From: a virus
Virus record (IMG/VR): IMGVR_UViG_3300037119_002078
Span: 1-41,974 of that record
Reading direction: 5' to 3' (one strand)
Length of the DNA: 41,974 nt
Below the pieces are notes generated by a model. The model did no database searches and had not been told where the DNA came from. It worked only from the letters and a program-made list of their open reading frames with translations. The position numbers and the translations under genes were made by a program. Position 1 is the first letter of the stretch; each line of letters begins with the position of its first letter. This document shows, one piece after another, positions 432 through 34,289 of the stretch.

Positions 432-2162
432 ATGTCTGACATCAACATCAACGGCATCCCCAACATGGGGTTTCAGGGCGGCGGCGGTGGCTATTTCTAT
501 AACCCCGCTGCTAACCTCGCCCAGAACCAAGCCGCGTTGGCCCAGCAACAGGCTACAGCCGCCCAGCGGCAACAGCAGATGCAGGCTGAAGGCCAATACT
601 TCAACAACTGGTCTACAAGCACAAACGCCCACGCCAAGGCGATAACCGACGCAATGATTGCGTCCAACCTCTCTGTCGGCAAGGCCCAAGCACCGGGGTA
701 TTATGCTGGTAATCGCATTGTCACCCCGATCAACACCGCCGGGTATTCGCAACAGAACCTGGACGTCGCAGCCGCAGGCGTGGACCCGACGGCGCACTGG
801 TTCGATTACGGCTTGAAAGAGGGCCGCAACGCCCAGACCTTTAATCCTTACCAATATCTGCAACAGAACCCGGACGTCTGGTCGGCCGGGGCGGATCCGT
901 ACCAGCATTATAATCAGTACGGGATCACCGAGGGACGCACCGGCGCGTGGAGCGACTATAACCCCACCGACTATCTGAACCTGAACCCAGACGTTAAAGC
1001 CTCGGGCATGGATCCGACGGCGCACTGGTTTCAGTTTGGCGAGAAAGAGGGCCGCCAAGGCGCTGCCGGCTTTCCAGCTCCTGCGCCGTGGCTCGGGGTT
1101 TCCAACCAACCCGCACAGCCGCAGCCACAGCAACAGCAGCTTGCCGGCGACTGGAACAGTTTCTTTAATACGGCTACGGCGGGCGGCGGCGGGGACTACA
1201 CCGGCAAAGACGCCTTGGCGGCGGAATACTATCTGGCTAATCCCGACGTGTTCAAGGCGGCCCAGCAGGCGGGTGGTAACCACACTGACTACGCGCTTAA
1301 TCACCTCATGAGCTTCGGCGATGATGAGGACCGCAGATTTTTTGACGCCAACGCCTACTTGCAACAAAACCCCGACGTGTTCGCGGCAGGTGCAAACCCG
1401 TTCCAGCACTACACCCAATATGGCAAGGCCGAGGGCCGCGCCGCGCCCCTGAGCGGCACGTTCGATGACCGCTGGTACGGCTTACAAAACCCGGACGTTC
1501 TTGCTGCGGGCATGGACCCTACCGCGCACTGGTTCGAATACGGCGCGAAAGAAGGTCGTGCCGGTGGCCCCGCGTTCAACACTTCAGGGTATAAAGATCC
1601 TTGGGCAGCAGGCATCCCGCAGGGGCGTAATAGCCGTGACGTGCTAGCTGCGATGCTGGCAGCGTCTCAGTCTACCGGCATGAGCCCAAATGCCATGTCG
1701 GCACTCTTTGGTGTGGAAAGCGTCTGGGATCCGAGGGCTAATACCAAGGGCAATCCGAATTGGGGCGTGCCGCAGTTAAGTGAAGACATGTGGGGTGATG
1801 CGCCATTCAAAGGCGTAATCAACGGCAAGACTTGGCAGCAATACAGGGACGGGACAGCTGCCGAGCAGATCGGCGTTTTCGCTGACTGGCTTAAACGCTC
1901 CGGAGCTATGACCCGAGGCGGCCTCGACTTCGCCGCGCAGCCAGAAGACATGCAATTTGCTTTGCTGATGGCTAACCAACTTGGCGGTCATTACGGGATG
2001 GACTGGCGTAACCGCATAGCTGGAGGCGACATGACGACGCCTGTCTACCAGGGAGACAGGCAAGCCGGTGAGCTAGGCAATTTAAGCCCGCAGGCTTTCA
2101 TAAAAGCTTATTGGGATCGAGTAGCCAGATGGCCTACGCAGCAGACAAACTGGGGACCGTAG
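432..2162 (+). CDS. Virion protein with NPDV/EGR repeats and C-terminal lytic transglycosylase-like domain
   Basis: A 576-residue protein. The N-terminus has a Gly-rich tag (GIPNMGFQGGGGGYF) shared with the product at 31155-31910, then a Gln/Ala-rich helix. From about residue 103 to 383 there are six copies of a roughly 30-residue repeat of the form YLxxNPDVxxAGxDPxxHWxxYGxxEGR, one degenerate. This repeat is common in proteobacterial surface and RTX-like proteins and also occurs once in 32778-34289. The last ~180 residues look like an SLT/lysozyme-type domain: FGVESVWDP carries the likely catalytic Glu near residue 430, followed by GVPQLSEDMW. I infer a tail-associated protein that locally opens peptidoglycan; it could instead be part of the lysis cassette because it follows the holin candidate. 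Confidence 0.75.
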   Translation: MSDININGIPNMGFQGGGGGYFYNPAANLAQNQAALAQQQATAAQRQQQMQAEGQYFNNWSTSTNAHAKAITDAMIASNLSVGKAQAPGYYAGNRIVTPINTAGYSQQNLDVAAAGVDPTAHWFDYGLKEGRNAQTFNPYQYLQQNPDVWSAGADPYQHYNQYGITEGRTGAWSDYNPTDYLNLNPDVKASGMDPTAHWFQFGEKEGRQGAAGFPAPAPWLGVSNQPAQPQPQQQQLAGDWNSFFNTATAGGGGDYTGKDALAAEYYLANPDVFKAAQQAGGNHTDYALNHLMSFGDDEDRRFFDANAYLQQNPDVFAAGANPFQHYTQYGKAEGRAAPLSGTFDDRWYGLQNPDVLAAGMDPTAHWFEYGAKEGRAGGPAFNTSGYKDPWAAGIPQGRNSRDVLAAMLAASQSTGMSPNAMSALFGVESVWDPRANTKGNPNWGVPQLSEDMWGDAPFKGVINGKTWQQYRDGTAAEQIGVFADWLKRSGAMTRGGLDFAAQPEDMQFALLMANQLGGHYGMDWRNRIAGGDMTTPVYQGDRQAGELGNLSPQAFIKAYWDRVARWPTQQTNWGP

Positions 2163-2532: not shown

Positions 2533-2850
2533 CTAAGCGTTGCCGACGGTCGGCAGCATCTGGTCGCAATAGGCCCGCAGTTCCCGGCTGATTTCCGACA
2601 TGTACTCCAGCTGGCCCGGCGTCGGCATGCCCTTGGACTGCCGCGCATTCTCGGTGATGGTCGAGAACACGAACGTCGCCCCTGCGAAGAACGTCTCGCG
2701 CATGTCGTCAAACTGGTCTTTGGGCATGCCTTCCGGCGCGTAGCGGTAGCAGTAGGCGACCCACGCCGCCTCCACTGGTTGGCCGGCCTCGAGGTATTCT
2801 TCCATCAGTTCCCGAACCCGCTCTTTCCTAGTGCTGCGATCCACTCTCAT
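2533..2850 (-). CDS. Hypothetical protein, 105 aa
   Basis: A soluble, charged 105-residue protein with helical character and no signal peptide or membrane segment. I do not recognise a domain. A strong purine-rich ribosome site (GAAGGGGGGA) sits just upstream of its ATG, inside the methyltransferase gene, and its first codons overlap the methyltransferase stop by four bases (ATGA). The pair is therefore translated together. It is the last gene of the leftward operon before the hairpin at 2489-2528. Confidence 0.75.
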   Translation of the reverse strand: MRVDRSTRKERVRELMEEYLEAGQPVEAAWVAYCYRYAPEGMPKDQFDDMRETFFAGATFVFSTITENARQSKGMPTPGQLEYMSEISRELRAYCDQMLPTVGNA

Positions 2851-3806
2851 GGCGCAATCCCCCCTTCCATAAACAACCCGGCATCGTCACGAATGCGGCG
2901 CTCTGCCATTACGGTGTATTCCGGATTTAGTTCGATCAGCAGCGCGTTGCGGCCGAGCCGATCGGCGACCAACCCCGTCGTGCCGGCGCCGCCAAAAGGG
3001 TCAAGGACGGTGCCGCCTTTCGGGCAGCCGGCCTTGATGCACGGCTCAATCAGGTCGGGCGGGAAGGTCGCGAAATGTGCTTCGGCGAACGGTTGGCTGG
3101 CGACTTCCCAAACGCTGCGCTTGTTGCGGGTGCCGTTCATCGGGCCATTGCCTTCCCGCTTGCCGCCATCCATCCGTCCGTCCTGCGCCGTCATATATTT
3201 TGCGCCGACAGTCTCATTCCAAAATTCCCGCGAAACAGGATCGGCAATCGCCGCCGCATCATAGAAATACCGCGCGCTCTTGCTCATCAGGAAAATATAC
3301 TCGTGCGCCTTGGTGCAGCGGTCGGTGACGCTCTCAGGCATCGGGTTCGGTTTCGACCAGATGATGTCCTGGCGCAGATACCAGCCGTCAGCCTGTAGGG
3401 CGAACGCGACACGCCAGGGGATGCCGATCAGATCTTTGGGCTTTAAACCGGCAACATTTCCCGGCCTGACGGCAAAATTGTTGAGATACGCCTGTTTGCC
3501 GCTCGCTTCGTCCTTGCCATTATCGCGCAGCGTTGGGGCGACTTGCGTTGTCCTCCCTCCGCTTGAATAACTATCCCCCAGATTAAGCCATAGCGTGCCA
3601 TCGTCCCGTAGCACCCGGCGCACTTCGCGGAACACCGCCACCAGTTCAGCCACGTAGGCATCCGGCGTCGGTTCCAGTCCGATCTGGCCGGCGATGCCGT
3701 AATCGCGCAAGCCAAAGTACGGCGGCGATGTCACACAGCAATGCACGGATTTGTCCGGCATTGCCGCCAGCACGTTGCGGCAATCGCCGTGTCTAATCGT
3801 TAGCAT
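2847..3806 (-). CDS. DNA methyltransferase (N4-cytosine/N6-adenine type)
   Basis: A 319-residue SAM-dependent DNA methyltransferase. The catalytic motif IV TSPPYFGL is near the N-terminus (about residues 26-33) and the SAM-binding motif DPFGGAGTTG is near the C-terminus, so the order is catalytic motif first, as in beta-class enzymes. The TSPPY form is more typical of N4-cytosine enzymes than DPPY, but N6-adenine cannot be excluded. The ATG at 3806 fits the family start (MLTIRHGDCRNVL, the usual N-terminal strand with NVLAAMPDKSVHCC); the reading frame stays open further upstream but that part overlaps neighbouring genes. No restriction enzyme gene lies beside it, so it is probably an orphan enzyme for protecting phage DNA or marking regulatory sites. 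Confidence 0.9.
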   Translation of the reverse strand: MLTIRHGDCRNVLAAMPDKSVHCCVTSPPYFGLRDYGIAGQIGLEPTPDAYVAELVAVFREVRRVLRDDGTLWLNLGDSYSSGGRTTQVAPTLRDNGKDEASGKQAYLNNFAVRPGNVAGLKPKDLIGIPWRVAFALQADGWYLRQDIIWSKPNPMPESVTDRCTKAHEYIFLMSKSARYFYDAAAIADPVSREFWNETVGAKYMTAQDGRMDGGKREGNGPMNGTRNKRSVWEVASQPFAEAHFATFPPDLIEPCIKAGCPKGGTVLDPFGGAGTTGLVADRLGRNALLIELNPEYTVMAERRIRDDAGLFMEGGIAP

Positions 3807-3981
3807 TGGATCTGGCCTTTTCACGCTGCTTCCAGATTGACAATGCCTTGCGGGCCTTGTCTCGGGTCTGGATGTTAGTCTGAACGATGGTTTCCTTGCC
3901 ATCTTCCCAGCGCACGACCTCGTAATGACCAAGCGCCAAATCCCGCCAGATTGAATAACGCACGGGGTCGTGCCGGTTCAT
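3793..3981 (-). CDS. Hypothetical protein, 62 aa
   Basis: The start at 3981 is chosen because ATG there overlaps the stop of the 33-residue gene upstream (ATGA at 3978-3981) and GAGG lies about 8 bases before it. The product has a short beta-rich domain (YSIWRDLALGHYEVVRW, then ETIVQTNIQT) followed by a basic helix. It could bind nucleic acid, but I do not recognise the family. It overlaps the methyltransferase start by 14 bases, so the leftward genes form one translationally coupled operon. Confidence 0.6.
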   Translation of the reverse strand: MNRHDPVRYSIWRDLALGHYEVVRWEDGKETIVQTNIQTRDKARKALSIWKQREKARSNAND

Positions 3982-4079: not shown

Positions 4080-4348
4080 CAGCGTGCCTCCCCATAAACG
4101 TAGGCGGCGGCGCTGTAGGCGGTGGCCTCGTGCGGGCAGGCGTTGAGCGGCTTGGTGGCCTTCACCGCGTCATTGATGGCCTCGACCAGACGCTTAGTCA
4201 GACCCTCGTCCTCGAAGAAGAACGTCAACTCGGTCGCGCCGTAGCGGGTTTCCAGCCGTAGGATCATCGGCTGGCCGAATGATGCGTGGTCAATCGCCTG
4301 AATGCCGGTGATCAGGTGGAACGAGATGTTGGTAGTCGGGACACTCAC
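4079..4348 (-). CDS. Hypothetical protein, first gene of leftward operon
   Basis: An 89-residue protein starting at GTG 4348 (VSVPTTNISFHLI), chosen because GGAG lies 8 bases upstream. An ATG at 4384 in the same frame has no ribosome site and would lie in the control region. The product is an alpha/beta protein with a hydrophobic strand pattern (MILRLETRYGATELTFFF) and a C-terminal helix. I do not recognise the family. As the first leftward gene it sits directly next to the divergent control region shared with the HTH gene at 4438. Confidence 0.65.
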   Translation of the reverse strand: MSVPTTNISFHLITGIQAIDHASFGQPMILRLETRYGATELTFFFEDEGLTKRLVEAINDAVKATKPLNACPHEATAYSAAAYVYGEAR

Positions 4349-4437
4349 TTGTGATGCTCCATCGGTTGTGTGTTCAGCCAACATATAGCAAAAAAGCTAT
4401 TGCACAATCCCTATTTGCTGCTGTAAGGTTTGATCCC
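4349..4437. promoter_or_regulatory. Divergent early control region with inverted repeat
   Basis: This AT-rich gap separates the leftward methyltransferase operon from the rightward early operon. It contains a perfect inverted repeat ATAGC-A6-GCTAT at 4385-4400, and two similar direct half sites, CTATTGC (4397-4403) and CTATTTGC (4411-4418). TATATG reading leftward (about 4388-4383) and TTGCAC at 4400-4405 reading rightward could be promoter elements. I infer an operator region for the adjacent HTH protein. The exact promoter hexamers are uncertain. Confidence 0.5.
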
Positions 4438-4665
4438 ATGAAAAAACTCCATCCCAACATTGTCCAGCTGCTCGCCGACATCGAGACCTACCGTACGCTG
4501 TCCGGTGAGGACCGCACCGCGTTCGGCCTCGGAGCCGTGAACGACGGGAACTTTATCTCCCGCGTCGAGCACGGCCGGCAACCGTCGTTTTCGACCATCG
4601 ATCGAGTGTATCGCTACATCGAGGTCCGCACCAAGGCTGTCCACAAGAAAGCCGCACGTCGATGA
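4438..4665 (+). CDS. Small HTH DNA-binding regulator (Cro/CI-like candidate)
   Basis: A 75-residue basic protein starting at ATG 4438 (MKKLHPNIVQLLADIETYR). The segment NDGNFISRVEHGRQPSFSTIDRVYRYI has the recognition-helix and following-helix layout of XRE/Cro-type HTH proteins. The frame is open upstream to 4351, but those codons lie in the control region and lack a ribosome site. It is the first rightward early gene, divergent from the methyltransferase operon, so it is well placed to control the switch between the two, like a phage Cro or the controller protein of a methyltransferase unit. No integrase is present, so lysogeny is not supported. Its stop overlaps the GcrA-family start (ATGA). 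Confidence 0.7.
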   Translation: MKKLHPNIVQLLADIETYRTLSGEDRTAFGLGAVNDGNFISRVEHGRQPSFSTIDRVYRYIEVRTKAVHKKAARR

Positions 4666-5135
4666 AGGGCGGTGGACATCGTGAGACTTGGACGCTGGCA
4701 ATGCTGGTGCGGCTGCGCGAGCACCACGCCGCCAACCTGACGTTCGGCCAGATTGCCAACAAGCTGAACACCGAGTTCGGCACCATCGTCACCCGCAACG
4801 CCTGCATTGGAAAGGGGCGGCGTCTGGGCCTGCCCCAGAGAGAGAAGCCCGCCATGCTGACCGCCGAGCAACGCCAAGCACAGACCCGCATCGAGCGCCG
4901 CCGCCGCAAGGCCGAGAAGCGGATTGCGCCGCCGCCGACCTACGTTCCATTACCGGATCCGCCGCGGCCGCCGCCGGACGCGCTGACGATCTACGACCTT
5001 CAGCACAATGACTGCCGCTGGCCGGTACATGGCGAGAAAACCGAGATGCTGTACTGCGGCCGGCCCAAGGTCCGCGGCTCCTACTGCTTCAAGCACGCGC
5101 GGACCGCCACCGATCGATCGGGGAGGGGCGGATGA
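4662..5135 (+). CDS. gcrA: GcrA-family cell cycle regulator homologue
   Basis: A 157-residue protein with both GcrA signatures. The N-terminal HTH has WTLAMLVRLREHHAANLTFG followed by TRNACIGKGRRLGL at about residues 44-57, matching the conserved VTRNAVIGKxHRLGL of GcrA. The C-terminal sigma-interacting part has CRWPV near residue 118, YCGRP and YCFKHAR. Between them is a Pro- and Arg-rich linker. GcrA in alphaproteobacteria recruits sigma70-RNA polymerase to promoters carrying methylated GANTC sites. A phage copy could redirect host transcription or recognise phage promoters. It overlaps both neighbours by four bases, in an early operon that starts back-to-back with a DNA methyltransferase operon. 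Confidence 0.9.
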   Translation: MKGGGHRETWTLAMLVRLREHHAANLTFGQIANKLNTEFGTIVTRNACIGKGRRLGLPQREKPAMLTAEQRQAQTRIERRRRKAEKRIAPPPTYVPLPDPPRPPPDALTIYDLQHNDCRWPVHGEKTEMLYCGRPKVRGSYCFKHARTATDRSGRGG

Positions 5136-5386
5136 TTGCCAAGACAACGCGGCCTCACTTACTCACCCGCGAAGCCGCCGCCGCCCGCATCGAGGCGCTG
5201 GAGGCGGCGCTGCGGGCGTGTGTCCAGTACCATGTCAAGGCCGCCGCCGACAATCGAGCCATCGCGGCGGTCAATCAGAACAACGATCTGGGCGAGGACA
5301 GTCTGACAGCCGCCATCGACCACGATATAGCGGCGGAAGATATCGGCGACATCGCCCGCGCCGCCCTCGAGGAGCAGGACAAGTGA
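5132..5386 (+). CDS. Hypothetical protein, 84 aa, coiled coil
   Basis: An 84-residue Ala-rich acidic protein. The first half (TREAAAARIEALEAALRACV) is a predicted coiled coil; the second half is acidic (EDSLTAAIDHDIAAEDIGD). No family is recognised. It starts on the ATGA that ends the GcrA homologue and ends on the GTGA that starts the VRR-NUC gene, so it is locked into the early operon. Confidence 0.7.
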   Translation: MIAKTTRPHLLTREAAAARIEALEAALRACVQYHVKAAADNRAIAAVNQNNDLGEDSLTAAIDHDIAAEDIGDIARAALEEQDK

Positions 5387-5733
5387 AGCTAAAAATCAGC
5401 GAGCATTCGCTGCAAGTCACCGTGCTCGACTACCTGACCTACAACGCCAAGCCGGACATCTTCTGGCTGGCAATCCCGAACGCTGCCCGCCGCTCGCTTA
5501 GCCTCGGCGCTCGGATGCGGGCCGAGGGTCTGCAAGCGGGCGTCGCTGACCTCTGCATTATGCTGCCGGGCGGCAAGGTCGGCTGGCTGGAACTGAAGAC
5601 CGACAGAGGCCGGCAATCGATCGCGCAGAAAGGTTTCGAGGCCAAGTGCAAGCGGCTCGATCATCCCTACGCGCTAGCAAGGACGCTGGACGAAGCAATT
5701 GCCGCACTCACACAATGGAAGGCCCTGAAATGA
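5383..5733 (+). CDS. VRR-NUC domain nuclease
   Basis: A 116-residue stand-alone VRR-NUC (PD-(D/E)XK superfamily) nuclease. The GTG at 5383 is chosen: it overlaps the previous stop (GTGA) and follows GAGGAGCAGGAC. The N-terminus has HSLQVTVLDYL; IPNAARRSLSLGARMRAEGL precedes the catalytic GVADL (Asp near residue 56), then WLELKTDRG gives the Glu-x-Lys pair near residues 70-72, and QKGF supplies the conserved Gln. VRR-NUC enzymes cut branched or free-ended DNA and are common in phages as structure-specific or Holliday-junction-type nucleases. Its stop overlaps the start of the IS110/Nop-like gene by four bases (ATGA), and that gene abuts the repeat array. This makes it a candidate nuclease partner for that system, although it could simply serve recombination. 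Confidence 0.85.
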   Translation: MKLKISEHSLQVTVLDYLTYNAKPDIFWLAIPNAARRSLSLGARMRAEGLQAGVADLCIMLPGGKVGWLELKTDRGRQSIAQKGFEAKCKRLDHPYALARTLDEAIAALTQWKALK

Positions 5734-6590
5734 CCGACACTCTCGAGCACCGCGAACCGGCAATCCGTCTCAGCCGGGATCTGATCAAGGCCAGCAGCAC
5801 CATGACGACGATGGAAGCGCGCTACCTGGTCGACGCCTACTATCTGATGCAGGACGATCGCAAGCGCGCCCATAACCAGGTGCGAGCAATGGAGGAGGAA
5901 CCGCATAGTGTGATCGGCTGGCTAGCCGGGCAGAGCGAGACGCTGGAGGGCCAGATCAAACGCGCGCTGGACAGCTACAGCGACAGCCACCCCGCGGGCG
6001 CGTGGCTGAAATCCAACTACGGCATCGGGCCGGTGATCGCGGCCGGGCTGCTGGCTCATATCGACATCCGCAAGGCACCGACCGTTGGCCATATCTGGCG
6101 GTTCGCCGGCCTCGACCCGACCACCAAGTGGGAGAAGGGCCAGAAACGGCCGTTCAATGCCGAACTGAAAACGCTGTGCTGGAAGCTGGGGCAGTCGTTC
6201 ATGAAGTTCAGCAACAAGGACGAGTGCGTCTATGGCGCGGTGTATCGCGAGCACAAGGCCAAATACGTCGCCCGCAACGAGGCTGGCGACTATGTGGCGC
6301 GATCGGCCGAGATCCTGGTCGAGAAGAAATTCCGCGCCGACACCGACGCGTTTAAACATCTGAGCGGCGGCAAGCTACCGCCGGCCCAGATCGATGCCCG
6401 CGCCCGCCGCTACACGGTGAAACTGTTCCTGTCGCACTTGCAATGCGTCTGGTGGTTTATCGAATTCGGTGAGCTGCCGTCCGCGCCGTATGCGATCGCG
6501 CAGAAGGACCATACACACTTCATCGCCATGCCCGGTCACCAACTGGTACCGGGATTGACCGAGGCATTGCGTAAGAAGGGATGGGCCTAA
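5730..6590 (+). CDS. IS110/Nop-domain-like protein, probable nuclease-less Tas protein of a TIGR array
   Basis: A 286-residue basic protein. ATG 5730 overlaps the VRR-NUC stop (ATGA). Residues about 30-90 are helical and coiled-coil-like. Residues about 95-165 resemble the C-terminal Transposase_20 region of IS110 enzymes: NYGIGPVIAAGLLAHIDI (helix-hairpin-helix, near 95-112), then FAGLDPTTKWEKGQ and a helix with LKTLCWKLGQSF. This is the fold family that relates IS110 to the Nop domain of box C/D proteins and to Tas proteins. I see no DEDD RuvC motif and no HNH motif, so it is neither an active IS110 transposase nor a TasR/TasH nuclease. The 36-nt-period array begins 12 bases after the stop. 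I infer that it binds RNAs made from the array. The assignment rests on motif layout and neighbourhood. Confidence 0.7.
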   Translation: MTDTLEHREPAIRLSRDLIKASSTMTTMEARYLVDAYYLMQDDRKRAHNQVRAMEEEPHSVIGWLAGQSETLEGQIKRALDSYSDSHPAGAWLKSNYGIGPVIAAGLLAHIDIRKAPTVGHIWRFAGLDPTTKWEKGQKRPFNAELKTLCWKLGQSFMKFSNKDECVYGAVYREHKAKYVARNEAGDYVARSAEILVEKKFRADTDAFKHLSGGKLPPAQIDARARRYTVKLFLSHLQCVWWFIEFGELPSAPYAIAQKDHTHFIAMPGHQLVPGLTEALRKKGWA

Positions 6591-6602
6591 GCCAGCTTCA
6601 GC

Positions 6603-7622
6603 GAGAGCACCATGACGATTGAGCGAGCCAGAGAGGTAGAGAGTGCCATTGGCAGAGAGCGAGCCTAACGGAGAGAGAGCGCCAAAAAACAAGAGCGAGC
6701 CGTTCAGGTCGAGAGCACCTAAGGGTATGAGCGAGCCACGGAATTCGAAAGCACCGAGGAAAAGGAGCGAGCCAGATGGATTGAGAGCACCTGAATGCTG
6801 GAGCGAGCCGTCGGTTTTGAGAGCACCAAAGATCGTGAGCGAGCCAAGTCTGATGAGAGCACCGTAAGAGGGAAGCGAGCCAAGAGGCCAGAGAGCGCCG
6901 TGCGACAAGAGCGAGCCAGTTCATGTGAGAGCACCATACAGCGTGAGCGAGCCACCTCCTCGGAGAGTACCAAACGAAGTAAGCGAGCCAGCAAAACTGA
7001 ACGCGCCATATTCCGGGAGCGAGCCACGAAATGTGAGAGTACCAAGATCACCGAGTGAGCCAGTTGGTGAGAGAGCACCGAATGAGCAGAGCGAGCTAGA
7101 TAACTGGAGAGCACCAAGGTCGCCGAGCGATCCATTTAAATAGAGAGCACCAAAATGAGCGAGCGAGCCACGCGAGGTGAGAGCACCAGATAACGCGAGC
7201 GAGCCAGCAACGTGACTGCAACAAAATCCGCGAGCGAGCCGCATCCACGGAGAGTACCGCGCAGCGTGAGCGAGCCAGTCATCGCGAAAGCAACAGGGCT
7301 AATGAGCGAGCCGACAGGATTGAGAACACCAGAGTAAGCGAGCGAGCCTTTGTGGATGAGAGCACCAAGCGAGCCGAGCGTTAGCCATCCACAACGAGAA
7401 CACCACAGAAGGCGAGCGAGCCGGGCATGCTGAGAGTACCGAGGAGCAGGAGCGAGCCAGCCGCAGGGAGAGTACCATCCACAAGGAGCGAGCCACACAC
7501 GCTGATAGCATCATCAAATAGGAGCGAGCCACACCCCCAGACGGCACCAAACTAGATGAGCGAGCCAACTGAAGTGAGAGCACCAAGCAAGCCGAGCGTC
7601 AGCCACTTGCAGCGAGAGCACC
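6603..7622 (+). repeat. TIGR-like array: 57 alternating 9-nt repeats with 56 different 9-nt spacers (28 dual-spacer units of 36 nt)
   Basis: The array alternates repeat A (consensus GAGAGCACC, 29 copies, 13 exact) and repeat B (GAGCGAGCC, 28 copies, 21 exact). Every repeat is followed by a 9-base spacer, giving an 18-base step and a 36-base AB unit. All 56 spacers differ, and 41 of 56 begin with A, so the tenth base is partly conserved. Irregularities are one 8-base spacer (7206-7213) before a decayed A repeat GACTGCAAC (7214-7222), and two B repeats with two extra bases, GAGCG-TT-AGCC and GAGCG-TC-AGCC (second one at 7594-7604). No reading frame stays open across it. A degenerate half unit overlaps the stop codon at 6585-6602. 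The array lies in the early operon directly after the IS110/Nop-like gene. Layout, unit length and neighbour match TIGR arrays, which yield 36-nt guides with two spacers. Transcription is inferred to be rightward. Confidence 0.85.
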
Positions 7623-7629
7623 AAAACCC

Positions 7630-8139
7630 ATGAGCACCAACCCGTTTGACCAACTCGCCGCCGAGCAGATGGCGGATGCCACCAAGCGTAAGCTGGAAGC
7701 CAGCCGCAAGCGCGCCGAGAAACGCCAAGCGCACATCGTCCAGAGCGACGCCGACGCACCGATGATCTTAGGTCCGCAAGAACAAAAGCTAGCGGATCAA
7801 TCCAAGCAGATGCGAAGTTATCGGGCGTGGAAGAAATCCGAGTTCGATGCGATGGCCAAGCATCCGCTGTACTTCTCGAAATGGAACGAGTTCACGCGCC
7901 GCGTCCGCGAACTAACGCCGGACAACACCGACGCCTTCGTTGGCTACGTCGCCAAGCAGCGCTGGCTGCTCGAGGCCGAACTCGACATTCGCCGGCTGGC
8001 GCTGTCGTTCGTCGCCAACCGGCTGATCCGGATCCGGCTGGAGCAGGGGCTTAGCCCCATGGACGACAGCCTGCCGTTCTCCGAGGAGCCGCCGACCTTG
8101 TTCGAAACCATCCGCAACCTACTGAGGACCATGACGTGA
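7630..8139 (+). CDS. Hypothetical early protein, 169 aa
   Basis: A basic, helical 169-residue protein. The N-terminal ~60 residues are highly charged (TKRKLEASRKRAEKRQAHIV); the middle contains FSKWNEFTRRVRELTP and the C-terminal part has a hydrophobic helix pattern (RLALSFVANRLIRIRL). No family is recognised. Its ATG lies inside the last spacer position of the array, and the last A repeat (GAGAG at 7614-7618) is the only purine-rich stretch available as a ribosome site. It is coupled to the next gene by a GTGA overlap, so it probably belongs to the recombination/replication group. Confidence 0.75.
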   Translation: MSTNPFDQLAAEQMADATKRKLEASRKRAEKRQAHIVQSDADAPMILGPQEQKLADQSKQMRSYRAWKKSEFDAMAKHPLYFSKWNEFTRRVRELTPDNTDAFVGYVAKQRWLLEAELDIRRLALSFVANRLIRIRLEQGLSPMDDSLPFSEEPPTLFETIRNLLRTMT

Positions 8140-9173
8140 GCATTATCAAGAAGACCCTCGACCAATACGCCGCCTCTGTGGATAAGCTGTGGACACACGA
8201 CCGCAGTAACACGCTAGGGGCTTCAGAAGTCGGGCAATGCGCGCGCAAAGTCTTCTGGCTCAAGAGTGAGAACGACAGTGCCCATCGTGTGGATAGAGAC
8301 CCCGACTACACCGAAACCTGGGGCGCGCGGATGCGCGGCACGGTATTCGAAGACAAGTTCTGGGAGCCGGCGTTGCGGGCCAAGTTCGGCAAGCGGCTGT
8401 TGTTTGCCGGAAGATATCAAAAGACATTCGTCAGCGATTTCCTGTCGGCGACACCGGACGGCATGATCATCAACCTGACCGCCGAGGAACGCGCCGAAAT
8501 CGGGACCGGCGCTGATTGCGTCATGGTCGAGTGCAAGACTGCGGATCCGCGGACAAACCTCGACGTCGCCAAGCCGCAGAATGTCTTTCAAACACAAGTC
8601 CAGATGGGGCTGGTTCGGGAGAACACCGACTATCGGCCAACACACAGCGTTCTCAGCTACACCGACGCCAGCTTCTGGAGCGACGTGAAAGAATTCGTGA
8701 TCGAATTCGATCCCGCGCTGTACGAGACGGCCAAGCAGCGCGCGATGATGATCATGACCGCGACCGAGCCGCCCAAGCCAGAGGGTTATATCGGCGGCGG
8801 CTACGAATGCCGCTACTGCCCGTTCACGATTGCCTGCGGGATCCAGCGCCGGAACTTGCCTTTTCAGGACAACGAAGTTGACCCGCAATTCGCCGCCGAG
8901 ATGAAAGATGCGGCATTGTCCCTCAGGGCAATGGAAAATTCTAGGGACACACTAGACAGTGACGTCCGCGCGGCTCAGGATCAAATCAAGTCTCGCCTGC
9001 GCGAGAAAGGCGTTCGGAAGATCCCCGGCGTGTTGCAATGGTCCTCAGTCAAGGGACGCACCGGGTTCGATAACAAAGCAATCCAAAAAGCCGCCGTCGA
9101 GGCGGGTGTTGATCTGGATCAGTTCAAGACACAGGGCGAGCCAACAGATCGCCTTGTCATCACCGTTACCTGA
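8136..9173 (+). CDS. PD-(D/E)XK nuclease, Cas4/RecB-like, with probable Fe-S cluster
   Basis: A 345-residue protein starting at GTG 8136, which overlaps the previous TGA. Motifs in order: GASEVGQCARKVFW (about residues 27-40, containing Cys35), TPDGMI near 107 (catalytic Asp), MVECKTAD near 130-137 (Glu-x-Lys), a Gln-rich helix (QTQVQMG), and CRYCPFTIAC near 225-234. Cys35 plus the three C-terminal cysteines form the pattern of the 4Fe-4S cluster of Cas4 and AddB nucleases. Such phage enzymes act as exonucleases in recombination and replication. The next gene encodes an acidic-tailed protein that may bind its ssDNA product. An adaptation role for the nearby repeat array, as Cas4 has for CRISPR, is possible but unsupported. 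Confidence 0.85.
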   Translation: MSIIKKTLDQYAASVDKLWTHDRSNTLGASEVGQCARKVFWLKSENDSAHRVDRDPDYTETWGARMRGTVFEDKFWEPALRAKFGKRLLFAGRYQKTFVSDFLSATPDGMIINLTAEERAEIGTGADCVMVECKTADPRTNLDVAKPQNVFQTQVQMGLVRENTDYRPTHSVLSYTDASFWSDVKEFVIEFDPALYETAKQRAMMIMTATEPPKPEGYIGGGYECRYCPFTIACGIQRRNLPFQDNEVDPQFAAEMKDAALSLRAMENSRDTLDSDVRAAQDQIKSRLREKGVRKIPGVLQWSSVKGRTGFDNKAIQKAAVEAGVDLDQFKTQGEPTDRLVITVT

Positions 9174-32777: not shown

Positions 32778-34289
32778 ATGTCGAAGCCCGAAGCTCCTAC
32801 ACCGCCCAACCCGTATCAAACGGCAGCGGCGCAGACCGGCACCAACGTCTCGACGGGGGTGGCGAACGCGTTCCTCAACAACGTCAACCAGAGCACGCCG
32901 CAGGGGAGGATTAATTACGACGTCACCGGCAACTACAGCTGGCAAGATCCATCCACCGGGCAGACCTACAACATTCCGCGCTTTACCTCGACGCAAACCT
33001 ACGGCATCGACCCGTATACCTACAGGAGCCAGAACCCCGACGTCGTCGCGTCCGGGATGGATCCGCAGCTGCACTGGCAGCTGTATGGACAGAAAGAGGG
33101 GCGCGCGGCCTCCGGCGAGGCGGCGCTGTACAATACCTCGCTGGGCACCCGCCAAGCGCTGGCGAGCATGGGGCTGTCGCAGGCTAATCGGGCTTCTAAC
33201 ATACTCTCAACGCCGTTCAATCCGAACGCGGGTGCACCAACCGCCGGCAGTGCCAGCGGTATCCTGGGCGCGCCGCAGGCGAAAACCTCCTACGACGCGG
33301 GCGGCCAGATCCAGACTGAGTTTGGTGACGCGGGCGATATCACCAAGAGCTATGGCGCAGGCGATTTCAGTCAGGACCGCCAGAATGTTGAAGACGCGCT
33401 AATGGCGCGGATCAACCCGCAACTGTCGAAAGAACGCGGCAACATCGAGCAGCGGCTGGCGGATCAGGGCATTCGCTACGGCTCGCAGGCCTATACGTCG
33501 GCAATGGACGACTACAACCGGCAGGCTACCGATACGCGGTTCGGCGCGATCGGCCAGGCCGGGCAAGAGCAGCAGCGCATGATGGACATGGCCGCGCAAA
33601 GAGCAGGCTTTCAAAATAGTGCGCAGCAGCAACAATACGATCAGCTGATGGGGCGCGGCAGCTTCGCCAACCAGGCACAAGCGCAGCAGAACGCCCAGAA
33701 TGCCGGTGCGGCGGGTTTCTACAACGCTGGCGCAGGGCAGCAGTTGGCGCAGCAACAGTCCGGCTTCAATGCGCAAAACGCCGCGCGCAACCAGTACATG
33801 CAGGAGCAATACCAGCAGCGCAACCAGCCGCTGAACGAAATCGCGGCCTTGATGAGCGGCTCGCAAGTCCAGCAGCCGAACTGGCTCAACTCGCCGTCGT
33901 CACAGATCGCTACCACTGATATCGGCGGGTTGATCAACCAGAATTTTGCGCAGCAACAGCAGAACTACCAGACCGCCACCAGCAGCTGGAACGCGACAAT
34001 GGGCGGTTTACTGGGGCTGGGCGCGGCAGGCATCAAGGCGTCCGATCGGCGGGTGAAAAAGAACGTCGATCGCATCGGCACGGTGTTCGCCGCCAGCAAT
34101 GACGGCGAGCGCGAGAAACTGCCGATCTACGAATACGACTACAAGGAAGGCCACGGCACGCCCGGCCGGCATGTCGGTCCGATGGCGCAGGACGTCGAGC
34201 GGCTCGATCGCAGCGCCGTGCATAACATCGGCGGCGTCAAGCATATCGACACCGGCAGGGTCATGGGCAGCATTCTGAGGGCGGCGTGA
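32778..34289 (+). CDS. Internal virion (ejection) protein with one NPDV repeat and S74-like C-terminus
   Basis: A 503-residue protein. Near residue 82 it carries one copy of the YxxQNPDVVASGMDPQLHWQ...YGQKEGR repeat that occurs six times in 432-2162. The middle is a very Gln/Ala/Asn-rich helical region of about 200 residues. The C-terminus (KASDRRVKKNVDRIGTVF, LPIYEYDYK, RHVGPMAQDVERLDRSAV) matches the opening of Peptidase_S74 intramolecular chaperones, which normally end tail fibres. Here it is cut short, without the full catalytic domain. The combination suggests an ejection protein in which the chaperone piece is used for folding or as a docking part. Confidence 0.7.
   Translation: MSKPEAPTPPNPYQTAAAQTGTNVSTGVANAFLNNVNQSTPQGRINYDVTGNYSWQDPSTGQTYNIPRFTSTQTYGIDPYTYRSQNPDVVASGMDPQLHWQLYGQKEGRAASGEAALYNTSLGTRQALASMGLSQANRASNILSTPFNPNAGAPTAGSASGILGAPQAKTSYDAGGQIQTEFGDAGDITKSYGAGDFSQDRQNVEDALMARINPQLSKERGNIEQRLADQGIRYGSQAYTSAMDDYNRQATDTRFGAIGQAGQEQQRMMDMAAQRAGFQNSAQQQQYDQLMGRGSFANQAQAQQNAQNAGAAGFYNAGAGQQLAQQQSGFNAQNAARNQYMQEQYQQRNQPLNEIAALMSGSQVQQPNWLNSPSSQIATTDIGGLINQNFAQQQQNYQTATSSWNATMGGLLGLGAAGIKASDRRVKKNVDRIGTVFAASNDGEREKLPIYEYDYKEGHGTPGRHVGPMAQDVERLDRSAVHNIGGVKHIDTGRVMGSILRAA

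What the first reader, a model, noticed from the sequence alone, without database searches (positions are those of the whole stretch)
6603..7622. TIGR-type dual-spacer array: 28 units of 36 nt with two alternating repeats and 56 distinct 9-nt spacers
Seen directly: GAGAGCACC and GAGCGAGCC alternate without a break 57 times, always followed by a 9-nt unique segment (one is 8 nt). The strict 9+9+9+9 pattern is neither CRISPR (repeats far too short, two kinds) nor a simple tandem repeat (half the sequence is unique). Known: TIGR-Tas systems, reported in 2025 from phages and parasitic bacteria, use arrays processed into 36-nt guides with two spacers and a Nop-domain protein. The array here lies 12 bases behind an IS110/Nop-like gene. 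This appears to be a phage-borne RNA-guided system with 28 possible guides.
Basis: partly seen in the sequence, partly recalled or inferred. Interest (0 to 1): 0.97.

Follow-up and report, generated by a model that had tools for sequence, protein, structure and literature searches.

The report
Phage TIGR array with TasA gene
A phage carries 29 tandem two-part RNA guides next to the gene for the protein that should hold them, which makes it a clear new member of the recently described TIGR-Tas RNA-guided systems; its relatives show that evolution preserves each 36-base guide as a unit, but what the guides aim at is still unknown.

Summary
Window 6590-7635 is a dual-repeat TIGR array, fused to the stop codon of a 286-aa nuclease-free Nop-domain gene (tasA, 5730-6590). 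The protein's best solved relatives by sequence and by fold are TasR and TasH, ahead of IS110 transposases. All 75 relatives parsed with their gene carry such an array, as does the founding TasH phage, whose edge repeat nearly matches this one.

Corrections: the edge repeat is GAGCGAGCC and the loop repeat GAGAGCACC, giving 29 units and 58 distinct spacers; the array overlaps the tasA stop codon and the next gene's start codon.

New evidence from about 1,500 distinct units: edge-repeat base pairs are kept between the two edges flanking a unit (z = 14 and 18), not within one edge, as selection on a mature 36-nt tigRNA would give (module inheritance adds to the signal). Spacers are inherited and reshuffled as whole A-loop-B units. 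TasA is under strong purifying selection (74 synonymous, 2 non-synonymous codon differences).

Controlled target searches (own phage, 16 phage records, about half of one bacterial chromosome, viral contigs) gave only chance matches. Targets and biological role remain open.

The parts
5730..6590 (+). tasA: 286-aa solo Nop-domain protein with no nuclease domain; stop codon 6588-6590
   Evidence: PDB sequence hits TasR/TasH; AF2 model and Foldseek; Pfam PF02371 only, no DEDD/RuvC/HNH; 74 synonymous vs 2 non-synonymous codon differences from L002
6590..6593 (+). 5'-truncated edge repeat AGCC, sharing its A with the tasA stop codon TAA
   Evidence: Sequence; same overlap in all seven closest relatives; first loop 14-15 nt after the stop codon in 40 of 63 relatives with a downstream array
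6594..7631 (+). TIGR array body: 29 units of spacer A (9) - loop repeat GAGAGCACC - spacer B (9), separated by edge repeat GAGCGAGCC
   Evidence: unit phase from spacer linkage and cross-unit edge covariation
7376..7386 (+). 11-nt edge repeat GAGCG-TT-AGCC: insert at the predicted processing point
   Evidence: same kind of insert in L002, L003, L004, L017
7594..7604 (+). 11-nt edge repeat GAGCG-TC-AGCC: insert at the predicted processing point
7632..7635 (+). 3'-truncated edge repeat GAGC, overlapping the start codon (ATG at 7630) of the next gene
   Evidence: Sequence
7630..8139 (+). Downstream phage gene of unknown function; context only, present near tasA in 4 of 87 loci

Best explanation
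This is a phage-borne dual-repeat TIGR-TasA system. One transcript runs through tasA and the array (inferred from the overlap with the stop and start codons). The array is cut in the middle of each edge repeat (GAGCG|AGCC) into 29 different 36-nt tigRNAs of the form AGCC-A9-GAGAGCACC-B9-GAGCG (predicted), whose two ends pair with each other at edge positions 3-8 and 4-7 (evolutionary evidence). A TasA dimer holds one tigRNA: the loop repeat on one protomer, the joined edge halves on the other (by homology with TasR/TasH). Spacer A then pairs with one DNA strand and spacer B with the other, at an adjacent ~18-bp site (by homology). TasA has no nuclease domain and no conserved nuclease partner gene, so it most likely binds and bends its targets rather than cutting them, blocking transcription or replication of other mobile DNA (inferred, about 50%; the role is not shown). 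The stated confidence is for the identification as a working TIGR-TasA system, not for the role.
For: Sequence and fold match Tas proteins first. All 75 relatives whose genes and arrays were parsed together carry arrays on the coding strand. The founding TasH phage array has edge AAGCGAG(C/T)CA. Edge positions 3-8 and 4-7 covary across 1,437 edges (91.8% paired vs 61.1% expected; 90.8% vs 82.7%). Within arrays the pairing holds between the two edges flanking one unit (z 13.7 and 18.2, 0 of 300 permutations), not inside one edge (z -2.8 and -1.3). 1-2 nt inserts sit at the predicted cut. Shared spacers are linked across the loop (67%) more than across the edge (39%). TasA differences are 74 synonymous vs 2 non-synonymous. 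No gene other than tasA is conserved beside the array.
Against: No RNA or binding data exist. No natural target was found in the own phage, related phages, about half of one carrier chromosome or viral contigs (against control). No rho-independent terminator follows the array, unlike most published arrays. Part of the cross-edge signal may come from units being inherited as modules rather than from pairing itself. The structure model is moderate (pLDDT 76).
Confidence: 0.95

Rival explanations
1. The array is a set of DNA binding sites (iteron- or parS-like) for a phage DNA-binding protein, with meaningless spacers.
For: Regular spacing of short repeats; such sites are common in phages and plasmids (general knowledge).
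Against: Spacers are shared exactly between divergent phages, up to 6 loci. Edge halves covary between two repeats 36 nt apart in one direction only, which makes no sense for DNA sites. All 75 arrays parsed beside a tas gene read on the tas coding strand, though only that strand was parsed. TasA matches RNA-guided Tas proteins.
Confidence: 0.02
2. It is a degenerate IS110-like transposon with a tandem bridge-RNA-like remnant.
For: Pfam PF02371 (IS110 C-terminal) hit; PHROGs calls the family 'transposase'.
Against: No DEDD catalytic domain; Tas structures beat IS621/ISCro4 by sequence and fold; long multi-unit arrays in relatives; strong purifying selection.
Confidence: 0.02
3. A TIGR-TasA system whose guides act inside the carrier cell as regulators, on the phage's own genes or on host genes (a rival to the roadblock role, not to the identification).
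For: TasA has no nuclease, so self-targeting would not be lethal; some units are conserved between phages, as expected for stable targets.
Against: No own-phage matches above chance; no excess in about 2 Mb of the L029 carrier chromosome. The host of this phage is not known, so host targets were not testable for the window.
Confidence: 0.25
4. A TIGR-TasA system acting with a separate nuclease, for example the VRR-NUC-like protein encoded just upstream (5383-5733).
For: The upstream gene overlaps the tasA start codon and has endonuclease/resolvase-like PHROG hits.
Against: That gene is found near tasA in only 2 of 87 loci, both close relatives.
Confidence: 0.04

Closest known systems
TIGR-TasA dual-repeat systems (Faure et al. 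2025, PMC12045711), e.g. Flavonifractor plautii TIGR-TasA
   Same: Solo Nop-domain protein, adjacent array of two alternating ~9-nt repeats with ~9-nt spacers, 36-nt unit, truncated edge repeats at both array ends.
   Different: 29 units here (published: most often 5-15); array embedded between a stop and a start codon with no terminator; box D is GA rather than the UG of TasR arrays; two covarying edge pairs beyond the box C/D pair, where the paper describes one for TasR.
TIGR-TasH of Salicola phage CGphi29 (PDB 21kl, 9vzx, 9w02-04)
   Same: Same Nop core (E 1.5e-9), 36-nt unit, nearly the same edge repeat (AAGCGAG(C/T)CA vs GAGCGAGCC(A)).
   Different: TasH has an N-terminal HNH nuclease; this protein has none.
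IS110-family transposases with bridge RNA (IS621, ISCro4)
   Same: Related RNA-binding fold (Foldseek E about 1e-2), Pfam PF02371.
   Different: No DEDD catalytic domain here; an array of 29 guides instead of one bridge RNA.
CRISPR-Cas arrays
   Same: Repeats separated by unique spacers, RNA-guided in principle.
   Different: Two 9-nt repeats, no Cas1/Cas2 or effector, and spacer turnover that is not confined to one end.

Membership tests
TIGR-Tas (dual-repeat) | Nop-domain Tas protein encoded next to the array | tested here: met
TIGR-Tas (dual-repeat) | Two distinct alternating 8-12-nt repeats with ~9-nt unique spacers | tested here: met
TIGR-Tas (dual-repeat) | Array begins and ends with truncated edge repeats | tested here: met
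   AGCC at 6590, GAGC at 7632
TIGR-Tas (dual-repeat) | Shared box D/box C-like ends of edge and loop repeats; pairing of the edge halves supported by covariation | tested here: met
   Both repeats run GA...CC(A); edge 3-8 and 4-7 covary. The motif is GA, not UG as in TasR arrays.
TIGR-Tas (dual-repeat) | Rho-independent terminator after the array (typical, not universal) | tested here: not met
   No + strand terminator-like site in 4300-8300; the array runs into the next gene
TIGR-Tas (dual-repeat) | Array processed to 36-nt tigRNAs bound by the Tas protein | not testable with these tools
   Indirect support only
TIGR-Tas (dual-repeat) | tigRNA-guided binding of both DNA strands | not testable with these tools
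   Natural target searches at chance level
TasA subtype | Solo Nop domain without RuvC or HNH | tested here: met
   286 aa, only PF02371 found; model is nearly all-helical with no nuclease fold
IS110 transposase | N-terminal DEDD catalytic domain | tested here: not met
CRISPR-Cas | One repeat of ~25-36 nt with cas genes nearby | tested here: not met
   Repeats of 9 nt; the RecE/Cas4-like exonuclease at 8136 is best matched by a phage recombination exonuclease family

The most novel reading that the evidence does not exclude
A widespread group of phages carries nuclease-free TIGR-TasA with large arrays (median 20, up to 62 units per locus) that grow and change by recombination of whole A-loop-B modules inside the array rather than by capture at one end. 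They would act as multi-guide RNA-directed DNA roadblocks against other mobile DNA that is not in current collections.
Probability: 0.35. Interest if true: 0.78.

Novelty: new member of a known kind. Interest (0 to 1): 0.5.

Why it matters
TIGR-Tas systems were described in 2025 with natural targets, spacer origin and array growth all unknown. This window and its relatives give about 1,500 distinct guide units in related phages, including near-identical TasA proteins with very different arrays. That makes array evolution directly measurable: the units behave as A-loop-B modules, change internally, and keep their end-pairing. It also gives a sequence-only test for mature 36-nt guides.

Tried and rejected
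Target search with the published rule (A, gap 0-2, reverse complement of B) and its mirror, full 9+9 and trimmed 8+8, against flanks of related phages, 16 phage records, about 2 Mb of the Latescibacterota chromosome carrying L029, and the window itself: nothing above permuted pairs. Exact scans of viral contigs with four conserved units: 1, 8, 2 and 4 hits; a deliberately mispaired control gave 3. Test for codon-like (period 3) variation between orthologous spacers: none (the looser set is dominated by chance pairs). Rfam: no match. Conserved partner gene: none. Long ORFs inside the array are an artefact of the 36-nt (12-codon) period and are broken by 1-2 nt inserts in relatives. A target search in the window's own host was not possible because the host is unknown.

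Full report
What is in the sequence. Between the tasA stop codon (6588-6590) and the start codon of the next gene (7630) the + strand carries 57 alternating short repeats with unique 9-nt segments. Exact copies of GAGCGAGCC (21) and GAGAGCACC (13) occur only there, and the period-36 self-match far exceeds the shuffled window. All 58 spacers are distinct and less G+C-rich (46%) than the window (61%). GAGCGAGCC is therefore the edge, GAGAGCACC the loop, and there are 29 units.

What the gene is. The 286-aa product has only an IS110 C-terminal Pfam hit. Its best solved relatives by sequence are TasR (9mty, 7e-10) and TasH (21kl, 1.5e-9), with IS621 at 0.03. An AlphaFold2 model (pLDDT 76) matches TasH and TasR chains in all 11 hits with E<=0.001, with IS110 elements next. 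No nuclease domain is present, so it is TasA. Between the window and L002 the gene has 74 synonymous and 2 non-synonymous codon differences: it is under strong purifying selection and so in use.

The family. Two scans of viral contigs returned 16 and then more than 400 relatives, of which 80 were kept; genome contigs gave 12, including loci in Halomonas sp. NO4 and Acidobacteriaceae KBS 96. In 398 genomes sampled from the phylum of Propionivibrio it is rare: apart from the centre genome, one strong hit (Halomonas, itself already known) and one weak hit. Of the 75 loci in which gene and array were parsed together, all have an array: 54 downstream only, 12 upstream only, 9 both; median 20 units, maximum 62. 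In 40 of the loci with a downstream array the first loop lies exactly 14-15 nt after the stop codon. As a positive control, the published TasH array of Salicola phage CGphi29 is recovered with edge AAGCGAG(C/T)CA and loop AAGACAACCA, and a Microcystis phage shows a further array. No other gene is conserved beside tasA, so there is no visible adaptation gene or trans nuclease. The closest isolated phages by terminase infect Rhizobium and Bradyrhizobium at 57-59% identity, so an alphaproteobacterial host is likely but not shown.

Evidence that the 36-nt RNA is the working unit. (a) Spacers shared between loci keep their neighbour across the loop in 67% of cases but across the edge in 39%. (b) Edge positions 3-8 (G-C, A-T, T-A) and 4-7 (C-G, T-A) covary across 1,437 edges. 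(c) Within arrays, pairing is kept between the 3' half of the left edge and the 5' half of the right edge of the same unit (z 13.7 and 18.2; 0 of 300 permutations), and not within one edge (z -2.8 and -1.3). Those two halves meet only in a unit cut inside the edges. Because units also move as modules, part of (c) reflects linkage; both readings require the same unit boundaries. (d) Inserts of 1-2 nt occur between edge positions 5 and 6, where the cut would fall, including two in the window, and leave the 9-nt spacers intact. (e) Spacer position 5 varies least between orthologous units (12 variable sites against a mean of about 26 per position), close to the seed reported for TasR; this is suggestive only.

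How arrays change. The window and L003 have TasA proteins about 99% identical but share only 11 of 29 units at up to 4 mismatches in 18 (5 exactly); with L002 they share 7 and with L004 one. Shared units lie at the start, middle and end, some in changed order (units 8 and 12 of the window are adjacent and reversed in L002 and L003). This fits shuffling and turnover of whole units inside the array, not capture at one end as in CRISPR.

Targets. The geometry used, A-(0-2)-rc(B), is my derivation from the 8-nt 3' overhangs and the C-5 rule in the paper; the mirror geometry was tested as well. No excess over permuted pairs was seen in 0.73 Mb of related flanks, the window, 0.76 Mb of phage sequence or about 2.0 Mb of the Latescibacterota chromosome that carries L029. 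Four conserved units gave 1, 8, 2 and 4 exact hits in viral contigs, against 3 for a mispaired control. So the guides show no sign of aiming at the carrier phage or its sampled kin; host or other mobile DNA of the true host could not be tested.

Mechanism. Shown here: gene identity, array anatomy, unit boundaries, selection on the gene, module-like inheritance. Inferred from TasR/TasH: dimer, tigRNA binding, two-strand recognition. Inferred without direct support: that binding without cutting blocks other mobile DNA. I hold the identification at 0.95 and the roadblock role at about 0.5.

Novelty. The system is a new member of a known kind. Whether this very family was in the table of the 2025 paper could not be checked (its supplements were not readable here). 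Its value is the comparative set, which makes questions left open in the 2025 description (array growth, spacer origin, targets) measurable.

Noticed in passing
L063 unit at 5194, L056 at 1773, L049 at 5339: Units whose two spacers are near reverse complements of each other (CCCTATG / CATAGGG), so the predicted target would be a tandem direct repeat.
   Followed up: no
window 5730-6587: PHROGs files this family (phrog_4285) as 'transposase, integration and excision'; it is better called TasA.
   Followed up: yes
L005 (3 arrays), L008 (4 arrays), L061 (many blocks): Some phages have several arrays spread between genes over several kb; in L005 the array blocks are separated by unrelated small genes.
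   Followed up: partly
window 4662-5135: GcrA-like cell cycle regulator gene (Pfam PF07750, 1.9e-22), consistent with an alphaproteobacterial host.
   Followed up: no
window 2847-3932, - strand: DNA methyltransferase gene (phrog_67, 3e-78) transcribed against the neighbouring genes.
   Followed up: no
window 432-2162 and 32778-34289: Two proteins share repeated motifs of the type DPTAHWFxYGxKEGR / NPDVxAAG.
   Followed up: no
window 6375-7759: Long antisense and sense ORFs inside the array arise from the 36-nt (12-codon) period and are not genes.
   Followed up: partly
L043, L046, L051, L054, L056, L057, L059, L065: One unit (ACGAGCATC / AAGGAGATC) is conserved with scattered changes in eight phages, which suggests a conserved target.
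   Followed up: partly
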